Both the position numbers and the translations under genes were made by a program. A stretch of 64,000 nucleotides of DNA from Histomonas meleagridis (lineage: Eukaryota > Parabasalia > Tritrichomonadida > Dientamoebidae): positions 1 through 64,000 of the forward strand of contig WSYJ01000037.1 of assembly GCA_020186115.1 (NCBI GenBank), in the 5' to 3' direction. Below the pieces are notes generated by a model that was not told the DNA's origin, ran no database searches, and worked only from the letters and a program-made list of their open reading frames with translations. Positions 4,176 to 40,367 of the stretch are shown here, piece by piece; positions within the stretch are counted from its first letter, which is position 1; each line of letters opens with the position of its first letter.

Positions 4176-4505
4176 TATTTATTTCATTAAATATTAATAT
4201 ACAATGATTTATAATTATTTATTTCATTAAATATTAATATACAATGATTTATAATTATTTATTTCATTAGACATTCATATACAATGATTTATAATGATTA
4301 TCATTAATTAAACATTCATATACAATGATTTATAATCATTTATTTCATTAAACATTCATATACGATGATTTATAACGATTATCATTAATTAAACATTAAT
4401 ATACAATGATTTATAATGATTATCATTAATTAAACATTAACATACAATGATTTATAATCATTTCTTTCATTAAATATTAATATACAATGATTTATAATTT
4501 CAATT
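4141..4505. repeat. About nine tandem copies of a 40-41-bp AT-rich unit
   Basis: The unit contains ATTAAAYATTAATATACAATG and ends GATTTATAATTATTTATTTC. Copies starting at 4141, 4181, 4221 and 4261 are in exact 40-bp register; later copies vary, with TAATGATTATCA replacing TAATTATTTATT. The first copy lies inside the left terminal repeat, so the array has expanded only on the left side. There are no spacers, so this is a minisatellite and not a CRISPR array. Confidence 0.88.
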
Positions 4506-14699: not shown

Positions 14700-16152
14700 T
14701 CTCAGTAAATGCTGCATATATCTTTTTTAACCCCATTTTGTTTAAGAAGTAATTTAACTATTTCTGTATGACCATTTCTAGATGCTTTTATAAGTGCTGT
14801 ATGAAATAATTTAAATAATTTCCAAATATTATTTTGAAATATAAAATTATTAAAATAGTTTTTAAAATAAACAAATAAACATCTCTAGCATTAATATCAA
14901 TTCCTTTTTGTTCAAGAAGTAATTTAACTATTTCTATATCGTTATATTTAACTGCTAAATGAAGACATGTCCCAAATTATTATAAGAAATTTCAAGTAAT
15001 AATAAGTAATTTCAAATTATTTATTGAAACTTTAAACATATAAAAAAAATTTCAAATCATATAAATAAATATAAAATTAACAAAATATATACCATATTAG
15101 TAAAATGAATACCAAATAAGCAAAATAAATACGAAATTTTATTATTGTACTCCAAATTATTAAAACAAATCATAAATTATTGAATGAAATTATAACTTAT
15201 TAAAATGATCTAAAAACAACAAAATTGAAGATATTTTGCATTAACATTAATTCCTTCATGTTGTAAAAGTACTTTTATTAAATCCATATTATTGATTTTT
15301 ACGATATTTTGAATTCTTCCTTGATCATAATATATTGTTTCCATGTTGTTTTTTCGGATTAATGAATGAAGTATTGTTTCAAACACTTAAAATAAACTAT
15401 AAATCATTAAAAAAGATAATAAATTTTTAAAACAAATATAAAATTTTATAAATATATTGTAAAAATTTAGAAAAAATTCTAAACTATTACAACAAACATA
15501 AAATTAGTGAATAAAATTCCTAATTATAGATACAAATATAAAAACATTAAAAAAGATTTCATATTATTATAAGAAATTTCAAGTTTTTATAGTAAATGCC
15601 AAATTATAAAAAGAAACATGTGTTGCATTTATATCAATTCCTTTGTGTTTTAAAAGTAACTGAAATATTTCAATGTTTTTTTCCAGTGCCATATGAAGTA
15701 GTGTTTCATTAAATGATTTAATTAAACCATAGAAAAATAAAATAAACGCCAAATTGTCACAATAAATATAAAACAATATAATTCAATAGCAAAAAAATAA
15801 AATAAATTTCATAATAAATAAATAAATAAATATAAGGTAATCAAAATGAATTTTTTTTATATTAACATCAATATCTTCACGTTGTAAGAGCAATTTTACT
15901 ATTTCTATGTTATTGTTTTGAACTGCTAAATAAAGTGGTTTATGAAATTATTAAAATAAATATAAAATCATGAAAATGAACACCTGCATTAATATTAATT
16001 CCTTCTTGTTTTAAAAGTAATTTTACTATTTCTACATTATTGTTTTGAACTGCAAAAATAAGTGGTGATTTAAATTATCAAAACAAATTTTAAATTATGA
16101 AAGTATACTCGAATTTATTAAAATATATATAAAATTATTATAATAAATACCA
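14700..16152 (-). pseudogene. String of six separated ankyrin repeats downstream of the DUF3447 gene
   Basis: Reading on the minus strand after the main gene, single ankyrin repeats recur at about 15983-16068 (SPLIFAVQNNNVEIVKLLLK), 15865-15945 (PLYLAVQNNNIEIVKLLLQ), 15620-15715 (TLLHMALEKNIEIFQLLLK), 15235-15400 (TILHSLI...MDLIKVLLQ), 14889-14985 (CLHLAVKYNDIEIVKLLLE) and 14710-14800 (TALIKASRNGHTEIVKLLLK, ending with a stop). AT-rich spacers of varying length separate them, and the repeats are not in one open frame. The repeat sequences are well conserved, which favours either tandem exons of the upstream gene with intervening spacers, or recently decayed duplicates. A GTAAGT directly follows the last in-frame repeat of the main gene (16209-16214). 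Confidence 0.6.
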
Positions 16153-16154
16153 AA

Positions 16155-17429
16155 TTATGAAAATATATAAGAATTTATTAGAACAAATATCAAAATTTTA
16201 AATAAAATACTTACAGCATTAATATCTATTTCTTTTAGTTTTAAAGTATATTTGACGAGTTCGACATTTTCTGATATAGAAGAATATAATAATAATTTTT
16301 TAGGAATATAATTATTTTGTACAAAGTACATAACATGATATAAGTTACCCATTTTTGCTGACTCTTTAACAATATTATCATGAATCATCATTCCTTCTTT
16401 TTCTAGAAATCTAAAAATTTCAAAATTCTGAGACAAAACACATATTCTACCTAAGTATTCATTATTATTAAAATCTTCAATTTTATTTTCATAAATATAT
16501 TTAAAGATATCATTTTGATGGAATTCAATTGCTGTTATATATGCATCTTCAAATGTTGAATGATTTTGTTCGCATAAATGAATAATTTCTTCATTTCCAC
16601 CTGCAACTGCATATTTACCTGTGTTTATTACATTTGCATTATTCATGAGTAAATATTTAAAACATTTAACTGATCCAAAAAATGCTGCATAATCAATTAA
16701 TGAAACATTTTTTTTGTTAATAAATGAACATTTTTCATATAGTGATTTTTCAATTATTTGATCAAAATCAAAATCATTTTGTGATGATATTTCTTGAAGT
16801 TTTTCGAGATCATCATCTCGAATTATTTTTGTTATTTCATTTGGATTATGGCCTTCTTTAATTAACTTCTTATGAAGTTCCCAATCATTCTTTGATAATT
16901 CTTTATAATTCGCAATAAATGTTCTACTAAATGGATCTTTATGATAGGATGTGAACGTATTTTCTTCTTCTGTTTTATATTGTGCAAAATATTTTGATTG
17001 GATATTTTTAGTTACACTTGAATCAATTAAATTTCGTTCAATCATTTTCTCGATTATATAAAGTTTTTCTTGTGATTTTGTTTTAAGTATATTCTTAACA
17101 AAAATATTAATGATTTTTAAAATGTTTTCATTAATTTCATTTTCTTTTTCTTGAATTGACTCTAAGTAATTTAAATATATATCAAAATCTTTTCGATGAG
17201 AACAAAATGCAGCATAAGTCAAATTACTTATAAGAAAATTAAATGATTCTGGAAAATAAAGATCGAATAATTTCATTGTTTGTTTAACAGAAATGTTAAA
17301 ATTTGCTTCAATAATATGAAAAATAATTTGATAAAGTTCCGAAAGTAATTCAATGTTGGTAGATTTATTTTTATCATGTTTGTGTTTTCTTTTTGAAGAA
17401 CTTTCTGAGCTTTTGATATCTTCATTCAT
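16155..17429 (-). CDS. DUF3447/ankyrin-repeat protein
   Basis: A 424-residue protein from ATG 17429. The N-terminal ~40 residues are Ser/Lys/Asp-rich. Residues ~40-200 form a helical region shared with the second copy at 37.8 kb. Residues ~200-405 are degenerate ankyrin repeats of the DUF3447 type (SLIDYAAFFGSVKCFKYLLM, KYAVAGGNEEIIHLCEQN, NVELVKYTLKLKEIDINA). After the last repeat the frame runs into 19 hydrophobic residues and a stop; these may be read-through of an intron or spacer, since GTAAGT follows the INA codons. The family is hugely expanded in trichomonads and its function is unknown; protein-protein binding is assumed from the ankyrin fold. Close paralogue: 37838-39061; relics at 26.9 and 51.0 kb. 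Confidence 0.8.
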   Translation of the reverse strand: MNEDIKSSESSSKRKHKHDKNKSTNIELLSELYQIIFHIIEANFNISVKQTMKLFDLYFPESFNFLISNLTYAAFCSHRKDFDIYLNYLESIQEKENEINENILKIINIFVKNILKTKSQEKLYIIEKMIERNLIDSSVTKNIQSKYFAQYKTEEENTFTSYHKDPFSRTFIANYKELSKNDWELHKKLIKEGHNPNEITKIIRDDDLEKLQEISSQNDFDFDQIIEKSLYEKCSFINKKNVSLIDYAAFFGSVKCFKYLLMNNANVINTGKYAVAGGNEEIIHLCEQNHSTFEDAYITAIEFHQNDIFKYIYENKIEDFNNNEYLGRICVLSQNFEIFRFLEKEGMMIHDNIVKESAKMGNLYHVMYFVQNNYIPKKLLLYSSISENVELVKYTLKLKEIDINAVSILFKILIFVLINSYIFS

Positions 17430-31687: not shown

Positions 31688-32615
31688 TAAACTCAAAATA
31701 TCCTTTGTGTGGAAATAAACATTATTTGAATTTTTTACTTTTTAGGAAAAATAAATTCAATACTTTAAGTATCGTTTTTATCTGAAAAAATGGTATCGTT
31801 CTATTGAAAATCGCATCATTTATTTCTGGTGCAAAGTTTGAATTTAGCCACTTGTGGCAGCAATTGTTTTGATGTATTGCGGAACTTTAACAGAACGTAG
31901 CACTTTAAATCAAATAGGCGAAGATAACAATTCATCAACTTATCAAAAAATTTATCTGATCGAACTTAAAGTTGGTATAACACCAATTTCTTGGAAGCAC
32001 TTGGAAAATAGCAGTGAAGACACTGAATGCATATTATATACGTAATAGATGTATTTTTTTTCGCTAATTTAATTCATTACGACTGATTTAAAACCTGTTC
32101 AATTTTTGAGTAAACTATTTAAAAAACCGAAAACCTGTAACAGAAAATTAAATGATCATTCAATATATTGAAGGTTATTTTTACGACATTAAAAATATAA
32201 CCGTAATTATCTGCTGGAAAAGTTGTTGAAAGTGATATGATTCATAATGAAGTGTTTTAGAGTCCAATTATCATTTTCAGCTTCAAAAGGCTGAGGTAAA
32301 TTCACCCTTTCAAAATGTAAAATCTAATGTTATGATATCACAAAGATCATACATGAAATTGCCAACAAATTTACTGGAAAATGTGATGAAAATCGATCTA
32401 ATAATCAAATGCTGAGTACAATAGCAACTACAGAACAAAATTGCAAATAAAAATAAGTATGAGCTAATAAACTATTAGTTATCTTCGTTAAATGACAATA
32501 CGCTTAAAACGTTACGAACTGTTCAAAAAGTTGAAATGACTTCACTTATCCGATATAGTAAAATTTTATTTGAGATCATTACGATCGTTTTATATTGAAA
32601 TTAAATGTATAAATG
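31688..32615. other. Long intergenic region
   Basis: About 930 bp between the Derlin gene and the CARMIL-like gene. It contains only a short ATG-poor open stretch (31851-32045), without known similarity, that could be gene debris. No RNA gene or repeat seen. Confidence 0.4.
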
Positions 32616-32628
32616 ACACTTTTCATAT
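32616..32628 (+). promoter_or_regulatory. Initiator (Inr)-like element of the CARMIL-like gene
   Basis: ACACTTTTCATAT just before ATG 32630 resembles the trichomonad initiator TCAYTWYTCATTA and supports that start. Confidence 0.4.
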
Positions 32629-32629
32629 A

Positions 32630-35600
32630 ATGGCAGAAGGATTTGATTATCACCTAAGTCCAAAAGAACAAGAAAAAGTTGAAAGAATCGTACCAGTCAA
32701 TCAATCAAAGATATTTTTAGCATTTCATGCAGATATTATATTAAATGAAAAAAAATTCAAAGAGGGTACATGTGTTCTTACAACACATCTAATTATTTTA
32801 TGCAAGCGTACCTTTATTGGGAATGGCCTCTCTGAAATTAAGACATTTCATATTTTAAGACTAGAGAAATTTGCTATGATTAAAGAAAACATATGCAAAT
32901 TTATTATTAATAATGCTAAAGTGACCATAATTTCACAGGCGGCTTTACGTTTTGCTAGAGTTTTAAACAGGAATTACTATGTAATAACAACACTTTTTCC
33001 TCCAAATAAAAAGGTAAAATTCAAAACAAAGAACAAATCAGATTTTCCTCCATTTGACCCGCACATGTCACCATCACAAAAGTTACAGTTTTGCTATAAT
33101 GCTTATTGTTCATTTTACAAATGTTTATATATTCATGATATTCCACGTTTTTTCCATTCTTTAATTTTCAGCGGCAATGGAATAGCAAACTTAGACCAGC
33201 TTCCTACCTATCTTATTGATCTTAAATTCAGTTCAAATCTTGATCTAAGACCAGTTTTTAATTCATTAATTTTTTATCCATTGATTTATGGCATTTGCTG
33301 TTATGACGTAGATAGGTACGACATCGTGAAGTCAATGTCTCCATTGATTACATATACCAAATATCTTCAACTTATTGATATTCATAATTGCCAAGTTGAA
33401 GTTGGAATAAACGAACTAGCAGAAGCTCTGACCAAAAACCCTGAAAACAAAATTGTTTATTGGGATCTAAGTAACAATCCATTCAAAAACATCACTCCAT
33501 TTTGCAAAGCATTATCTTTAGCAACAGCACCAATTTTTTACCTAAACTTGTCAACAACACAGCTCACAACAGAGTCAACCATTGAGTTATTTAACTCGAT
33601 TTTGAATAATAAGAATTTATGGGGAATCAAATATCTATTTATTGATGGTGCTATCTTTTCAGAAGAAAGCTTACTAGCGTTATCAAAACTAATAAGCACA
33701 TTCGCTCAAGAAAAAATTCGTTCATTACACACTTTGAGCATTGCAAATATCAAAGGTCAAATCGAAACGGTTATAAACGTATTTAACCGTTGGCCTCAGC
33801 CGATTTCATCGTTCAATGTATCCAACAACGAACTTAACCAAAAGGCAATTTCAGAGCTTAATAAGTTCGTGAAAGGATCTGAATCATTAAAGGATCTGGA
33901 TATAAGTTCTACAAATCTTAGCTCAGATGATATTACTGATATAATCAATGGAATTTCAGAAAATCAAAAAATAACTGAAATGAAATTGAATTTAGCAAAA
34001 CTTGAATTAACTGGGAAGAAAATAAGAGATGTTATGAATGCATTTGAAAATTCAACATTAACAAAATGGACAGGAATTTCAATTGAATCTAATGATGTAC
34101 AAATGGAAGAGCTTGGAAAGTTCATTAGTGTTGCAAGGAGAATGACAAACTTGAGAAGTCTCTCACTTGGTGATAATTTCACATATAAAACCAAAGGAAT
34201 TGAAGAAGCTCTTTTACAAATCCTTTCACTTAATTCGCTTAGGTTATTAAGCATTAGGGGAACAGAAAAAAGATTTCTTGGAGATAAATTATACAGGTTT
34301 TTGAAAGCAATGAAAATAAATACAACACTTCTAAAGCTCGATATTTCAGGGAACAAGATCAAAGACACAGGCATGGATCTAGTTTGCGATGTTTTACGTT
34401 CGAACAAAATGCTTACAGAGCTTAATATTGATGGATCATGTCCAAAGAATCAAAAAACCCTTCTTAAATTCTTTGAAACTCTTTCCTCAAATACATACAT
34501 TGTTGAGTGTGCATTTCCATATGAAGATTTTTCGACACTTCTTAGTTCAATTTCGTCAAATTCCCAAATGCAGTCTTTCTTTGACCAATTTTCTAAAATC
34601 CAAAAGTCATCCCAAGAAGCCATTCAAAAGAATCAAATGGAAGTTGGCGCACATTCATATCTCTCCGAGAAGAAGCTCCCAGAGTTGGACGAACTGATTG
34701 ACAACATCACGATAAACGTTCACCAAAAACTTGAGAACACAAAATTCAATCAACACGCGGCTATTTCATCGGTTTTTGGGCTGCCCCTACCGCATTTAGA
34801 TCCCTCTGATGACCAGACCAAAGGTGCCATAATTGACCTGAAGCAACCACAATCTATTGATGAATATGAATTGAAGAACACAAACGTTATGGTAGTTGAG
34901 GATATTAGTATGTTAGAAACGCCATTAGGATTAAAGACACTTCAATATAACTCATTATGTATTCGAAGGTCAATTCATGTCGAGCCAAAGATTGACGTGA
35001 ACAAACTCGACCCAACAGAAGAAGAAATTTATCGAAACGCGCGAAAACTTGGAATACCACCAATTTTATTACAAGGAAATATGAATATGTCTTCGTTAGG
35101 AATACAGTCATTGGCGAAGAGCAACGACGTTGAAAAGAACCCAAAAAGAAAGAAAAGAATTACAAAGAAAGTTGTATCGAAAAAGAAGAAAGTTGTTACA
35201 AGGAAGAAAATAAGAAGGAAAAACAATGAAACAAATAACGTAGAACAATGCGAAGACAGCTTGGCTATGAGCGAATCAGATGAAGAAGAAAGTGAGGAAG
35301 AGAGCGAAGAAGAAACAAGCCAAAATGAAAGCAATAGCTTAAAGGTGGAGGAAACAAGCGAAAAAGAAAAGAGCAATAGCTTAGAGGTAGAAGAAACGAG
35401 CAAAGAAGAAAAGAGCAATAGCTTAGAGGTAGAAGAAAGGAGCAATAGCTTAGAGGTTGAAGAGACGAGCGAAGAAGAAAGGAGCAATAGCTTAGAGGTT
35501 GAAGAGACGAGTAAAGAAGAAAGGAGCAATAGCTTAGAGGTGGAGGAAACAAGTGAAACAACAAAGGAGTCGAGGAAAAGTGACAGCGAAACGAACACAA

Positions 35601-35929
35601 CAAAAAGTGACGACAAAACAGATAAAAGTGACGCTCAGAGTTCAACCAGGAAAAGTGACAGTGGAACGGATAAAAGTGACAATGAAAGCAAAACGTACAA
35701 AAGTGACACACAAAGCTCAACTGAAGATAGTGAAAATGAAAGCAGTTCCACAAAAAGTGATAGCGAAAGCAAAACAGAAAGAACCGAAAGTTATTCAAGA
35801 AGTGATACATCAAGCAAAAGCGAAGATGAGACAAGTGATAATAGTGCAAGTGATAGCGAACAATCGAATGAAGAAGAAACCAGCAGCAGTCGAAGTCGTG
35901 AATATTACACAAATAGCGACAGCACATAG
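32630..35929 (+). CDS. CARMIL-like leucine-rich-repeat protein with acidic repeat tail
   Basis: A 1099-residue protein from ATG 32630 (MAEGFDYHLSPKEQEKV). Residues ~1-140 look like a divergent PH-like domain (ILNEKKFKEGTCVLTTHLIILCKR). Residues ~220-630 carry about 14 ribonuclease-inhibitor-type leucine-rich repeats (YWDLSNNPFKNITPF, SLKDLDISSTNLS, LLKLDISGNKIKDTG). A linker is followed by a strongly basic stretch around residues 830-870 (KKKKVVTRKKIRRK) and then a ~230-residue acidic tail of Ser, Glu and Asp. PH plus LRR is the layout of CARMIL proteins, which regulate actin capping protein at the membrane; I did not find a certain capping-protein-interaction motif. Part of the tail is a 14-residue repeat. 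Confidence 0.55.
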   Translation: MAEGFDYHLSPKEQEKVERIVPVNQSKIFLAFHADIILNEKKFKEGTCVLTTHLIILCKRTFIGNGLSEIKTFHILRLEKFAMIKENICKFIINNAKVTIISQAALRFARVLNRNYYVITTLFPPNKKVKFKTKNKSDFPPFDPHMSPSQKLQFCYNAYCSFYKCLYIHDIPRFFHSLIFSGNGIANLDQLPTYLIDLKFSSNLDLRPVFNSLIFYPLIYGICCYDVDRYDIVKSMSPLITYTKYLQLIDIHNCQVEVGINELAEALTKNPENKIVYWDLSNNPFKNITPFCKALSLATAPIFYLNLSTTQLTTESTIELFNSILNNKNLWGIKYLFIDGAIFSEESLLALSKLISTFAQEKIRSLHTLSIANIKGQIETVINVFNRWPQPISSFNVSNNELNQKAISELNKFVKGSESLKDLDISSTNLSSDDITDIINGISENQKITEMKLNLAKLELTGKKIRDVMNAFENSTLTKWTGISIESNDVQMEELGKFISVARRMTNLRSLSLGDNFTYKTKGIEEALLQILSLNSLRLLSIRGTEKRFLGDKLYRFLKAMKINTTLLKLDISGNKIKDTGMDLVCDVLRSNKMLTELNIDGSCPKNQKTLLKFFETLSSNTYIVECAFPYEDFSTLLSSISSNSQMQSFFDQFSKIQKSSQEAIQKNQMEVGAHSYLSEKKLPELDELIDNITINVHQKLENTKFNQHAAISSVFGLPLPHLDPSDDQTKGAIIDLKQPQSIDEYELKNTNVMVVEDISMLETPLGLKTLQYNSLCIRRSIHVEPKIDVNKLDPTEEEIYRNARKLGIPPILLQGNMNMSSLGIQSLAKSNDVEKNPKRKKRITKKVVSKKKKVVTRKKIRRKNNETNNVEQCEDSLAMSESDEEESEEESEEETSQNESNSLKVEETSEKEKSNSLEVEETSKEEKSNSLEVEERSNSLEVEETSEEERSNSLEVEETSKEERSNSLEVEETSETTKESRKSDSETNTTKSDDKTDKSDAQSSTRKSDSGTDKSDNESKTYKSDTQSSTEDSENESSSTKSDSESKTERTESYSRSDTSSKSEDETSDNSASDSEQSNEEETSSSRSREYYTNSDST
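35330..35566 (+). repeat. Coding minisatellite: six copies of a 14-residue SNSLEVEETS... unit
   Basis: Units of 42 bp encode S-N-S-L-E/K-V-E-E-T-S plus four mostly Glu/Lys/Arg residues; the third copy is shortened to 9 residues by an in-frame deletion. Copies are nearly identical at DNA level, indicating recent expansion. It is followed by KSD-rich low-complexity sequence to the stop. Copy number probably varies between strains (inference). Confidence 0.85.
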
Positions 35930-35932
35930 AGA

Positions 35933-36444
35933 TATCGATTTTCTTTTGTGTTTTTGTCCATCTCCAACTCTAATAAACTACAGATTGTTACTGATTCTTT
36001 ATGCTGTCTTCCAATTGATTGCAATCATTTGAAGAATGTGACGAATTGGAATGAAAAATGTTATCGAGAAATTATTTAAGGAAAACTTCCATTTAAATGA
36101 CACATGTGTCATGTTACTTCTAATTTTAGGAGCAAAAACAAAAGTGTTTAGAAATTTGATATAGTGATATTCAATGTATCAAGTATATCAGTATAAAATA
36201 TTGGAAAGTTTAAACATAATTCGAGCCAAATAATATTAAATTCTTTCATTGACTTAAATAACTCTTATGACCATCTTTTGATTTTCATTTCTGTACTTAC
36301 ACTCTTTTCAAAACCACGTTATTCCTGGGTTCGAAAGTGCCTAAACTTATGTGTTGATCATGTACATTGCAATTGGAGTTCAGCTAACAGTATTGTTAAA
36401 CTTTGCAAAAATATGTGTAAACTTCATAATTTGATATTTGTGTT
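35933..36444. other. Intergenic, upstream of glucosidase II beta
   Basis: AT-rich, with an ATG-poor open frame at 36278-36460 that is in frame with the downstream gene but starts only with TTG or a weakly placed ATG (36413). It is better read as 5' non-coding sequence. No RNA gene; a GGGTTCGAA near 36328 has no tRNA context. Confidence 0.4.
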
Positions 36445-37612: not shown

Positions 37613-37837
37613 ATTTTATAATATTAAAATAAATATTGTATGCATATTAATTTTTTTTATGTTTAAATTGATTTTTGTTTCAATTGGATAAGAGAAAATT
37701 TAATATATCAAACTTGGGTTAAAAATTTTAATTAGTTATGAACTATTTTATTTCCTTGTAATTCTTCAATGAGAATTTGAATATTTTACATACTTTGCAA
37801 TATCGAATAATCTAAAAAATCATCGCAAATTTTCGTG

Positions 37838-39061
37838 ATGAAACAAAACGAAAGAATAATGGGAGATTACAGTCAAAATGAATTAGAAACACTGTTGTTA
37901 ATTGAGCAAATGTTTTCTGACTTGTGTAAAGAAAATATTAAGCAAAAAGCAAAATCAGTTATGGATAAGCTTGATAGTGATTATCCATTATCTTCTATCA
38001 TGAATATTGTACAAATAGTTTATACTTTATTTGTTATTAGACAACTTGACTTTTCTGAATTTATCAATTTTCTTAAAGAAATTGAAATAATAGAAGAAAA
38101 TAACAAATTCAATATTAATAATATATTTAATATATTCTCACATTTTATTATCAAAGAATATACCCAAGAATCATATTATCTTATTGAAAATATGATTGAA
38201 GAAAAACTCCTTGAATCAAAACTTATTAAAAATATACAAAATTCATATTTTGCACATTATATGACTGAAAAACAAATTAAAGAAAAGCATTTTTTGAGAT
38301 TTATGAAGAAAATCATTGAAAATTATGAAGAATTATCAAAGAATGATTGGGAACTTCATAAGAAGTTAATTAAAGAAGGAGTTAATCCGAATGAACTTGC
38401 GATAATAATTCGAAATGATGATATAGAAAAACTTCAAGAAATATCATCACAAACAAAATTTGATTATAATCAAACAATTGAACCATCACTTTATGAAAGA
38501 TGTGACTTTATTAATAAAGATAATGTTACATTAATTGATTATGCAGCATTTTTTGGGTCAATAAAATGTTTTAAATATTTACTTATGAATGAAGCAAATA
38601 TCGAAGAAACAGGTAAATATGCAGTTGCAGGTGGAAATGAAGAAATTATTCATTTATGTGAACAAAATCATTCAACATTTGAAGATGCATATGAAACAGC
38701 AATAGATTTTCATCGAAATGATATCTTTAAATATCTTTATGAAAATAAAATTGTTGAAAACTATAATTTAGAAGAACTTGGAAAAAAATGTGTTTCACAT
38801 TATAATTACAAAATTTTATCTTTTTTAATTAAAGAAGGAATGAAAATTAATGTGAATATTATTGATGAATCGGCAAGAATTGGAAATATTTTCCTTATCA
38901 AATATTTTCATAAAGACAATCAACTCCCATTAGATATTTTAATTTCTTCTTCAATATCAGGAAATATTGAACTTGTAAAATATATTCTTGATCAAAAAGA
39001 TATTAACATAAATGCTAATGATATTAATTTGTTTTATTTTATGTTTGTGCCAATAATTTAA
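37838..39061 (+). CDS. DUF3447/ankyrin-repeat protein, paralogue of the 16.2-kb gene
   Basis: A 407-residue protein from ATG 37838 (an alternative ATG is at 37859, MGDYSQNELE). It matches the protein at 16155-17429 over its whole length, including YEELSKNDWELHKKLIKEG, SLYERCDFINKDNVTLIDYA, KYAVAGGNEEIIHLCEQNHS and the final repeat SGNIELVKYILDQKDININA. The N-terminal half is more divergent. As in its paralogue, the frame ends a few hydrophobic residues after the NINA codons, and further ankyrin repeats follow after AT-rich spacers. Molecular role unknown; ankyrin repeats suggest protein binding. Confidence 0.8.
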   Translation: MKQNERIMGDYSQNELETLLLIEQMFSDLCKENIKQKAKSVMDKLDSDYPLSSIMNIVQIVYTLFVIRQLDFSEFINFLKEIEIIEENNKFNINNIFNIFSHFIIKEYTQESYYLIENMIEEKLLESKLIKNIQNSYFAHYMTEKQIKEKHFLRFMKKIIENYEELSKNDWELHKKLIKEGVNPNELAIIIRNDDIEKLQEISSQTKFDYNQTIEPSLYERCDFINKDNVTLIDYAAFFGSIKCFKYLLMNEANIEETGKYAVAGGNEEIIHLCEQNHSTFEDAYETAIDFHRNDIFKYLYENKIVENYNLEELGKKCVSHYNYKILSFLIKEGMKINVNIIDESARIGNIFLIKYFHKDNQLPLDILISSSISGNIELVKYILDQKDININANDINLFYFMFVPII

Positions 39062-39683
39062 TGTTTTAAGATAATATTTGGAAATTATTCAAAAGATTTT
39101 GGACGGCACTTATGTATGCTTCAAAATATGGATATAATGAAATAGCTAAATTACTTATTCAGCAAGAAGGAATTGATATTAATGCTCAAAATATTTATTT
39201 TTGTTAGTTATTGTTGATTAAAATAATTTAATGTTTCAGAATAATTTTTGGAAATTATTTAAAAGATTTAGAAATTCACTTATGTTTGCATCTCAAAACG
39301 GCCATACAGAGATTACAAAGTTGCTTCTTGAACAAAATATAAATTATATCAATGTTAAAGATATTTTTTTATTTTGTTTTGTATTTGTTTTGATGATTTT
39401 ATCCTGTTTCAAAGAATTTTTTGGAATTTATTAAAAATATTTAATACAGCACTCATTTATGCAGCTGAAAATGGAAATACTGATATAGTTCGAATTATAC
39501 TTTTGCAAAAAGGAATTGATATCAATATTAAAAACATTTATTTGTAAAAAATCGAGTTTATTTCATTATTTTTTGGTTTCAAAATTATTTTTGGAAATTA
39601 TTAAAATTATTTTTTACAGCACTTTATTATGCAACTAAAAATGACCACAATGAAATCGTGAATTTACTTCTTGGACAAAAATG
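39062..39683 (+). pseudogene. String of four separated ankyrin repeats downstream of the DUF3447 gene
   Basis: Repeats begin at 39103 (TALMYASKYGYNEIAKLLIQ), 39273 (NSLMFASQNGHTEITKLLLE), 39446 (TALIYAAENGNTDIVRIILL) and 39616 (TALYYATKNDHNEIVNLLLG, then a stop at 39681-39683). From the Asn codon of each N-A pair to the first codon of the next repeat the distance is 92, 92, 95 and 92 bases, always 2 modulo 3, so the repeats cannot be read as one frame. The spacers share TTTGGAAATTATT (once TTTGGAATTTATT) near their 3' ends. They may be exons with unusual introns, or decayed duplicates. Confidence 0.65.
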
Positions 39684-39964
39684 AATTATTTGTTTTGTTT
39701 ATTTTACAATCAATAAAGGTAAATTAACTTGTTAAAGAAAGAAAAACAACAACATGAAAAGGTTTAATAATTTTTCTTCTGTTTGATTTTAATTCGTTTT
39801 TGCATGAAATAATTGCTTAATACAAAATTGAATTTTTATATTTTTACATATTTAACCTTAGCAATTATTTTCAAAAAAATATAAATGATATTATTTATAA
39901 AAAATTGACTAAAATATGTAAGATATGGCTGAATAATGTACAAAAATATTTGAATACCATATTT
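39684..39964. other. Intergenic, upstream of eL24
   Basis: AT-rich sequence with no gene seen, ending at the GC block 39965-39974. Confidence 0.45.
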
Positions 39965-39974
39965 GGGGCACCCT
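39965..39974. promoter_or_regulatory. GGGGCACCCT block upstream of eL24
   Basis: Near-palindromic GC block, preceded by TTT, 48 bases before the eL24 start. It is the same 5'-TTTGGGGCACCC word as at 44901 and marks the abrupt change from AT-rich intergenic to gene-like composition. Confidence 0.4.
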
Positions 39975-40022
39975 GCAACGATTGCAATTGACAAACTTTG
40001 TTTGGTCCAACCTTACACTCCG

Positions 40023-40367
40023 ATGTCTCACAGAACAGAGATTGACGGATTCTCTGGACACCAATTTCATCCAGGCCATGGTATTATCTATATCCGTGAA
40101 GATAAGCATATGATGGCATTCGAATCTCGTAAAACATTCCGCATGTGGCAACGCAAGAGGAACCCAAGAAAGATCAGCTGGACTGAGCACTACCGCTTTG
40201 ATCACAAGAAATCCAACACTGACCAAGTTGTAAAGAAGGGACGCGCTCAAAGATCAAAGAAGGTTACACGTGGATATGCTGGTGTTTCCGTTGACGCAAA
40301 TGCCAAAGTTGCTACAACAGCTGTTAAGAGGCGTGTTCAACAAGTCAAGAAAGGAGGAAAGAAGTAA
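40023..40367 (+). CDS. RPL24: 60S ribosomal protein eL24
   Basis: A 114-residue protein. MSHRTEIDGFSGHQFHPGHGI is the eL24 N-terminus (x-x-E-I-D-x-FSG-x-x-x-x-PGHG), followed by FRMWQRKRNPRKISWTEHYR (the conserved QRKNPR-x-x-WT-x-x-R block), HHKK-like DHKK and a basic C-terminal tail (RVQQVKKGGKK). It belongs to the large ribosomal subunit and helps form an intersubunit bridge. The tail is shorter than in yeast or human proteins. ATG 40023 was chosen because the family starts a few residues before the E-I-D-x-FSG motif; upstream in-frame codons are non-ATG and include the GC block. Codon use is more GC-rich than average here, as expected for a highly expressed gene. Confidence 0.94.
   Translation: MSHRTEIDGFSGHQFHPGHGIIYIREDKHMMAFESRKTFRMWQRKRNPRKISWTEHYRFDHKKSNTDQVVKKGRAQRSKKVTRGYAGVSVDANAKVATTAVKRRVQQVKKGGKK

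What the first reader, a model, noticed from the sequence alone, without database searches (positions are those of the whole stretch)
39011..39616. Ankyrin repeats separated by fixed-register 92-nt spacers: possible unusual intron or skipped element
From the Asn codon of N-A at the end of one repeat to the first codon of the next (T-A-L or equivalent), distances are 92, 92, 95 and 92 here and 92 at the minus-strand locus (14892 to 14801). One more there is 152. All are 2 modulo 3, so read-through is impossible, yet the ankyrin codons stay well conserved. Spacers share an ATTTATTTg-like start and TTTGGAAATTATT near the end. Removing about 71 nt between a 5' GATAT and a 3' ATTT would restore D-(I/V)-F-x-T-A-L in every case, including the 152-nt one if 131 nt are removed. 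The borders do not show uniform GT...AG. Options: introns duplicated along with single-repeat exons but with non-standard borders; a spliced, eliminated or bypassed element; or decayed tandem copies.
Basis: partly seen in the sequence, partly recalled or inferred. Interest (0 to 1): 0.75.

Follow-up and report, generated by a model that had tools for sequence, protein, structure and literature searches.

The report
Ankyrin exons split by odd introns
In a poultry parasite whose genome is thought to have almost no introns, a large and mostly unannotated gene family appears to have its protein repeats cut apart by short AT-rich spacers with no normal splice signals, which the cell would have to remove from its RNA to make the protein.

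Summary
The window is from Histomonas meleagridis (contig size match). The core TTTGGAAATTATT occurs 3,200 times, against 27 for the reversed control. Spacer length is not fixed modulo 3: 80 dominates, but all residues occur and some loci carry multiples of 20 nt up to 400. Yet repeats stay open (90 of 102 against 54-62% simulated), keep framework residues, and in 18 of 33 arrays the last one reaches a stop with no further spacer. In loci not chosen by the motif, 26 of 29 spacers carry GG exactly 23/22 nt before TAL; a related species' protein implies the same place. No register gives GT...AG. Frameshifting at each spacer is not supported. Best reading: introns duplicated with single-repeat exons, non-standard borders, unknown removal route. 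No RNA evidence was available, and average pN/pS does not show purifying selection. Silent donor cassettes or decaying arrays remain possible.

The parts
37835..39022 (+). First exon of the plus-strand gene: DUF3447 / ankyrin region; its open frame runs to a stop at 39059-39061 inside spacer 1. Start codon uncertain.
   Evidence: ORF 37835-39061; DUF3447 4e-9, Ank_2 2.7e-8; 107 rows of matches in the genome, the window's own included, 96 without an internal stop
39023..39102 (+). Spacer 1, 80 nt; GG at 39080-39081
39103..39192 (+). Ankyrin exon 2 (core, 30 codons)
   Evidence: HMM hit
39193..39272 (+). Spacer 2, 80 nt; GG at 39250-39251
39273..39362 (+). Ankyrin exon 3
39363..39445 (+). Spacer 3, 83 nt; GG at 39423-39424
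39446..39535 (+). Ankyrin exon 4
39536..39615 (+). Spacer 4, 80 nt; GG at 39593-39594
39616..39684 (+). Last exon: half-repeat TALYYATKNDHNEIVNLLLGQK followed by stop TGA
16209..17429 (-). First exon of the minus-strand gene (DUF3447 / ankyrin); open frame ends at 16155 inside its spacer
16069..16208 (-). Spacer, 140 nt (= 7 x 20)
15979..16068 (-). Ankyrin exon SPLIFAVQNNNVEIVKLLLKQEGININA
15942..15978 (-). Spacer, 37 nt by the HMM boundary (40 if the exon ends one codon earlier)
15852..15941 (-). Ankyrin exon KPLYLAVQNNNIEIVKLLLQREDIDVN
15705..15851 (-). Spacer, 147 nt (boundary approximate)
15618..15704 (-). Ankyrin exon TLLHMALEKNIEIFQLLLKHKGIDINA
15321..15617 (-). Spacer, 297 nt (boundary approximate)
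15231..15320 (-). Degenerate ankyrin exon
14971..15230 (-). Spacer, 260 nt (= 13 x 20)
14881..14970 (-). Ankyrin exon TCLHLAVKYNDIEIVKLLLEQKGIDINA
14801..14880 (-). Spacer, 80 nt
14702..14800 (-). Last exon, ends in frame at a TGA (TALIKASRNGHTEIVKLLLKQNGVKKDICSIY, stop)

Best explanation
These are multi-exon genes: a first exon of about 400 codons (DUF3447 plus ankyrin), then several exons of one ankyrin repeat each, then a terminal half-repeat with the stop codon. The spacers are introns that were copied together with the single-repeat exons. They are removed from the RNA (inferred) although they lack GT...AG. What marks them is a 5' ATT(T/C)ATTTG stretch, a GG (in ATT(T/C)GGA) 23/22 nt before the TAL codons, and ATTT just before the codon preceding TAL. 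They probably lose 68-74 nt of the 80 (20n minus 6 to 12 in the tandem type), joining D-I to F-x-T-A-L or nearly so. The exact borders and the machinery (an altered spliceosome or another activity) are not shown.
For: Arrays genome-wide. Spacer lengths in all residues modulo 3, and 39 of 52 spacer indels not multiples of 3, whereas split-frame exons were rare: 2 exons (both in L048) in a set of 210 exon hits, and two more in L054. Exons open in 90 of 102 against 54-62% under simulated neutral change; 103 of 128 by an anchor that does not use the exon itself. Nine framework residues kept 80-95% against 63-72% expected, with changes concentrated at positions 5 and 8 and in the codon before TAL. 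In 18 of 33 arrays the last detected exon reaches a stop without a further spacer, and 11 of these 18 stop 20-24 residues after the T of TAL (my count). GG at -23/-22 in 26 of 29 spacers from loci not chosen by the motif, 0.0044 per position elsewhere. Proteins from another, unnamed species: P0014 reads through a 63-nt spacer with a Trp (codon TGG) seven codons before T-A-L, hence GG at exactly -23/-22; P0006 implies, by reasoning from its residues, an 80-nt spacer with a Gly codon at nt 57-59 (inference). Orthologous genes of two species keep one spacerless junction K-N-V-(L/M)-F-E-S-(P/A)-L, as a mature form might look. A U6 snRNA candidate with an ACAGAG box is present (43.7 bits, just under the cut-off of 44).
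Against: No RNA or peptide evidence was available. Average pN/pS is not below 1 in close pairs: 2.0, 1.09, 0.81, 0.88 by distance class, with out-of-frame controls 0.43-1.44. 12 of 102 exons carry stops and the most diverged are often broken (5 of 11 open at 33-40 differences). No GT...AG in any register. The T. vaginalis-type 3' motif ACTAACACACAG occurs only 3 times in the genome, the reversed pattern 2 times. With the exact flanks used, no spacerless processed copy was found, only one gap-10 match. In the 20-mer loci the GG is at -23/-22 in only 26 of 59 spacers, and the protein P0009 of the other species reads through what looks like a 60-nt spacer without it. The published annotation reports at most one intron per gene.
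Confidence: 0.64

Rival explanations
1. Silent cassettes. Only the first exon is translated, ending in the first spacer; the downstream repeats are untranslated donors that recombine into the first ankyrin repeat, and conversion keeps them open.
For: The first frame mostly ends soon after the first repeat (apart from two N-terminal fragments, matches end at residue 391-395 of a 395-residue query; open frames 365-541 codons). Close copies within arrays are near-identical, and the repeats vary at surface-like positions.
Against: Terminal exons differ from internal ones and end in a stop, 11 of 18 at 20-24 residues, which a silent donor does not need. In L051 about 87 codons continue in frame after the last half-repeat to a stop, and in L052 at least 77 to the end of the stretch, alike in both. 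Spacers carry a position-fixed GG.
Confidence: 0.14
2. Decaying tandem arrays: a 170-bp satellite-like unit made of the last repeat plus 3' sequence, multiplied without function.
For: Recent homogenised arrays, pN/pS near or above 1 in close pairs, some broken exons, and two arrays cut off at the same unrelated sequence.
Against: Stop and framework conservation beyond simulated neutral change, terminal exons with stops, and G kept in 15 of 17 at each of the two GG positions in 80-nt spacers 27% or more diverged from the consensus (several of the 17 come from motif-chosen loci).
Confidence: 0.12
3. The ribosome copes with the spacers: programmed -1/+2 frameshift or bypass at each repeat.
For: 80 and 83 nt are both 2 modulo 3. 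The downstream frame is free of stops through the spacer in 64 of 101, and 63-nt spacers are in frame with both sides.
Against: A frameshift window exists in 77 of 101 spacers, what shuffling predicts (0.78 +/- 0.02). Lengths of every residue modulo 3 occur, up to 400 nt. Only 13 of 52 spacer indels are multiples of 3. Some 63-nt spacers have in-frame stops.
Confidence: 0.05

Closest known systems
Canonical parabasalid spliceosomal introns (T. vaginalis types A and B; PMC12316389, abstract and passages seen)
   Same: Short introns in a parabasalid; a fixed distance between an internal signal and the 3' end
   Different: T. vaginalis introns are GT/AG with extended motifs and an ACTAA branch site fused to the 3' site, 63 active introns, no multiple introns per transcript; here there is no GT..AG, no such motif, and several spacers per gene
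Nonconventional introns of euglenids (PMC4770533, abstract and passages seen)
   Same: Variable non-canonical borders; removal mechanism unknown there too
   Different: Those have secondary structure that brings the ends together; here pairing between the ends exceeded the shuffled mean in 26 of 45 spacers, and ensemble energy was lower in 31 of 45
Non-canonical introns of Fritillaria borealis (PMC13326754, abstract and outline seen)
   Different: There the introns are established; here the elements were seen, in what I read, almost only in ankyrin arrays and are unproven at RNA level
Noncanonical introns of diplonemids (PMC12621601, listing and start of abstract only)
   Same: Abundant noncanonical introns in a protist
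   Different: Different lineage; their border types were not compared here
Animal ankyrin genes with repeat-sized exons (recalled, no call)
   Same: Exon boundaries follow the repeat period
   Different: Those introns are ordinary GT-AG introns (recalled)

Membership tests
U2-type spliceosomal intron (GT-AG) | GT at the 5' end and AG at the 3' end | tested here: not met
   No register leaving 3-15 nt gives GT..AG as the common ends across 65 non-redundant spacers
U2-type spliceosomal intron (GT-AG) | Trichomonad fused branch/3' motif ACTAACACACAG | tested here: not met
   3 copies in 43.3 Mb, reversed pattern 2; Histomonas's own consensus is unknown to me
U2-type spliceosomal intron (GT-AG) | Spliceosome present | tested here: inconclusive
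   U6 candidate at 43.7 bits against a cut-off of 44; the U1 model found nothing, and nothing rang in the control genomes
Intron (any kind) | Removed from RNA | not testable with these tools
   No transcript data held
Intron (any kind) | Flanking exons keep coding constraint and frame while the insert length is free | tested here: met
   average pN/pS does not show it
Euglenid nonconventional intron | Secondary structure bringing the ends together | tested here: not met
   26 of 45 above the shuffled mean; ensemble energy lower in 31 of 45, a weak lean
Ankyrin repeat | Profile match and canonical framework | tested here: met
   Pfam Ank models and DUF3447 on the first exons; internal exons by an HMM built from the arrays themselves, residues T-A-L..A..G..EIVKLLL
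Programmed -1 frameshift | Overlapping open window kept in every unit | tested here: not met
   77 of 101, expectation 0.78

The most novel reading that the evidence does not exclude
A previously undescribed class of thousands of small introns, defined by total length in steps of about 20 nt and by a GG at a fixed 22 nt from the 3' border instead of GT...AG, is spread one per ankyrin repeat through a family of more than 100 genes in Histomonas and at least one relative, and is removed by an altered spliceosome or by a different machinery.
Probability: 0.42. Interest if true: 0.9.

Novelty: new variant of a known kind. Interest (0 to 1): 0.74.

Why it matters
If true, a genome reported to hold 573 to 638 introns holds several thousand more that standard gene finders cannot see. 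A large repeat-protein family would then be almost absent from the annotated proteome, and there would be a natural set of thousands of alignable non-GT-AG introns for asking how splice sites can be defined. If the arrays are instead silent donors or decay, they are still a large unannotated component of the genome.

Tried and rejected
Frameshift or bypass: tested and not supported. Spacer translated in the downstream frame: 37 of 101 spacers have stops there, 32 of 101 in the last 63 nt. Rigid modulo-3 length: rejected on 52 indel events (13 multiples of 3). In the exact-flank list of gaps 81-111, however, 83 dominates by my count of its 97 rows: 83 x57, 81 x23, 100 x8, 82 x4, 84 x4, 86 x1. 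Many of these look related to each other, so I did not treat it as a modulo-3 rule, but it is a result that leans the other way. Of the 100 rows listed (of 1214), by my count 77 are 80 nt, 19 are 63, 2 are 66, and one each 71 and 77. RNA end pairing: weak (45 of 70 non-redundant spacers were folded). Canonical parabasalid intron scan of 247 kb with one strict pattern: nothing. Rfam (gathering threshold) and tRNA scans of the window: nothing. Related loci in viral contigs and genome contigs: none. In one search my frame numbering was offset by one base; frame 1 in that output is the coding frame. A 34-residue register (68 nt removed) was favoured by the spacerless junction but gives stops in at least 6 of 65 spacers, against 0 for leaving 9 nt at three offsets; not resolved. 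In one search, 22 of 124 sites more than 40 differences from the consensus were dropped before counting; 9 of those 22 were open.

Full report
WHERE IT IS. The window is 1-64000 of contig C31 in a 43.28 Mb assembly of 121 contigs. Contig C120 of that assembly is 3,384,422 bases, the size of the largest contig of the virulent Histomonas meleagridis strain in Palmieri et al. 2021 (PMC8529796; abstract, passages and the assembly section seen). The best named protein hits are H. meleagridis, one of them on a contig of that size. It is a parabasalid, a parasite of poultry.

WHAT IS THERE. In the window two genes, 37835-39684 (+) and 17429-14702 (-), begin with an open frame that matches DUF3447 and ankyrin models and continue as single ankyrin repeats separated by AT-rich spacers. 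The spacers on the plus strand are 80, 80, 83, 80 nt counted from the codon after the last repeat residue to T of TAL. On the minus strand they are 140, 37 (40 if the boundary is one codon earlier), 147, 297, 260 and 80.

GENOME-WIDE. The core TTTGGAAATTATT has 3,200 exact copies, the pattern read backwards 27. The consensus exon end, 50-80 nt, and the consensus next exon occur 1,214 times, reversed control 0. A search with the first exon gave 107 rows (105 candidates scored of 2,428 in the first look), the window's own included, 96 of them without an internal stop; apart from two N-terminal fragments they end at residue 391-395 of the 395-residue query, where the first spacer begins. In the protein database only three named Histomonas proteins matched this query, so the family seems largely unannotated.

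SPACER TYPES. In 142 spacers from the window and 20 stretches of contig C1 (chosen by the core motif), 114 are 80 nt. The 80-mer can be read as four diverged 20-mers (my reading). In seven loci chosen by a 20-mer tandem pattern the spacers are mostly exact multiples of 20 nt (40, 60, 80, 100, 120, 140, 160, 180, 240, 300, 400), with four exceptions among 59 (57, 81, 139, 141), and fall 27/18/14 over residues 2/0/1. A 63-nt class equals three 20-mers plus one codon (my reading). Counting the 97 rows by hand: 83 x57, 81 x23, 100 x8, 82 x4, 84 x4, 86 x1, and nothing else between 81 and 111.

ARE THE REPEATS TRANSLATED? For: exons located only by the spacer motif are open in the coding frame in 103 of 128 (the other two frames 13 and 4). 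90 of 102 homologous exons are open against 54-62% for simulated change of the same size, and nine framework residues are kept in 80-95% against 63-72%. The residues that vary most are position 5 (Y, L, I, W, K, C, F, R), position 8 (E, S, K, R, Q, W, Y, L) and the codon before TAL, which by my recollection of designed ankyrin proteins are binding-surface positions. Only two exons showed split frames in a set of 210 exon hits, both in L048, and L054 has two more, whereas 39 of 52 spacer indels are not multiples of three. Of 33 arrays with at least three exons, 18 have a last detected exon that runs to a stop without a further spacer, and 11 of these stop 20-24 residues after the T of TAL, often in a form such as LLxxK-stop, as expected for a final half-repeat. 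A nineteenth, L052, runs in frame to the end of the stretch fetched. In the other 14, 13 last detected exons are followed by another spacer or part of one (some cut by the stretch fetched) and one hit is weak. In L051 the frame continues about 87 codons beyond the last half-repeat to a stop, in L052 at least 77, alike in both (14 of 297 nt differ). Against: pN/pS averaged over exons is 2.0, 1.09, 0.81 and 0.88 in classes of increasing distance, while out-of-frame controls range 0.43-1.44. The average therefore does not show purifying selection and the case rests on site patterns, stops and terminal exons. 12 of 102 exons carry stops, mostly diverged ones. Spacer divergence is of the order of synonymous divergence: 0.106/0.157/0.249/0.304 against pS 0.042/0.147/0.294/0.384, so faster in the closest pairs and slower in the distant ones.

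SIGNAL IN THE SPACER. To avoid choosing by the motif I used five loci found through the first exon or an ortholog (L059-L063): 26 of 29 spacers have GG exactly 23/22 nt before TAL, while GG elsewhere is 0.0044 per position; 24 of 29 have ATTT at -7 to -4 and 20 of 29 begin ATT. In 17 spacers that have diverged at least 27% from the consensus but are still 80 nt, each of the two G positions is kept in 15 of 17; several of these come from motif-chosen loci. In spacers of other lengths (38, outside the 20-mer loci) the GG is at the same distance from the 3' end in 27; in the 20-mer loci it is there in 26 of 59; in the window in 5 of 8. Proteins of another, unnamed species read into such spacers. 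P0014 passes through a 63-nt one in frame with a tryptophan seven codons before T-A-L; Trp has the single codon TGG, so GG lies at -23/-22 there. P0006 has a glycine as residue 20 after its D, hence GG at nt 57-58, and residues compatible with a (S/T)-x-L series starting at nt 80 (inference). P0009 reads through what looks like a 60-nt spacer without GG at that place.

BORDERS. No way of leaving 3, 6, 9, 12 or 15 nt gives GT...AG as the common ends. The one natural spacerless junction I found, shared by orthologous genes of two species (60% identity), has four residues there (V-L-F-E or V-M-F-E), favouring 12. I cannot decide. ACTAACACACAG, the T. vaginalis-type motif, is at background. A U6 snRNA candidate with the usual ACAGAG box scores just under Rfam's cut-off, so a spliceosome is likely present; U1 was not found, but nothing rang in that search's controls.

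MECHANISM. Shown: alternating open repeats and spacers of varying length with a fixed internal signal, in a second species by inference. Inferred: the spacers are removed from the RNA so that one ankyrin solenoid is made. Not known: the machinery. A frameshift at each spacer is not supported, since the window needed exists in 77 of 101 spacers, what chance pairing gives. Secondary structure bringing the ends together is not evident (26 of 45 above the shuffled mean; ensemble energy lower in 31 of 45). Silent donor cassettes and decay remain, at lower probability.

COMPARISON. T. vaginalis has 63 active GT/AG introns with extended motifs and no multiple introns per transcript (PMC12316389, abstract and passages). 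Diplomonad introns also carry a branch site fused to the 3' site (PMC6679479, passages). Histomonas was annotated with AUGUSTUS trained on a transcriptome, with 573 and 638 introns in the two strains and at most one per gene; the word ankyrin does not occur in that paper's main text (its supplements were not read). One Histomonas proteome paper names one ankyrin-domain protein, KANK1 (PMC10063853, one passage); its relation to this family was not examined. Non-GT-AG introns are known in euglenids (PMC4770533), a tunicate (PMC13326754, abstract) and diplonemids (PMC12621601, listing only). My searches for Histomonas with intron or ankyrin, Tritrichomonas foetus with introns and ankyrin, trichomonad or Parabasalia with non-canonical introns, and Dientamoeba with introns listed no paper that, from titles and abstract starts, describes this. 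The library holds only part of the literature.

VERDICT. A real, strong and genome-wide pattern. The best reading is an intron class with non-standard borders copied with single-repeat exons; it needs RNA to be settled.

Noticed in passing
L031:5260-5290 and L047 (minus strand) after its last exon at 4436: Two arrays break off inside the spacer core and continue with the same unrelated sequence (AATGGGTAAATTGCACAACCGCAG...), as if a shared element or a duplicated breakpoint follows.
   Followed up: no
whole assembly G000: About 105 DUF3447/ankyrin first exons scored, mostly open, but only three named Histomonas proteins among hits to this query: the family looks largely missing from the annotated proteome.
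   Followed up: partly
L051-L057: 20-nt minisatellite (ATATGTTTTAATAATTTGGA)n filling spacers, 2 to 20 units, with 4 of 59 spacers off a multiple of 20.
   Followed up: partly
proteins P0026, P0027, P0030, P0034-P0036, P0040: Ankyrin proteins of other organisms, two of them named Tritrichomonas foetus (P0034, P0036), also end soon after an IDIN- or DxKG-like stretch; their gene models might be cut at similar spacers.
   Followed up: no
ankyrin exons, positions 5, 8 and the codon before TAL: Strongly variable surface-like positions and pN/pS of 2.0 among close pairs suggest diversifying selection on the repeats.
   Followed up: partly
window 39963-40367: An open frame matching ribosomal protein L24e begins 278 nt after the plus-strand array ends.
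   Followed up: no
window 34001-36000: Strong AT skew (0.298) and several long overlapping frames on both strands around 32570-36032, perhaps a repetitive protein gene.
   Followed up: no
G000:C36:377228-377335: Candidate U6 snRNA, 43.7 bits.
   Followed up: partly
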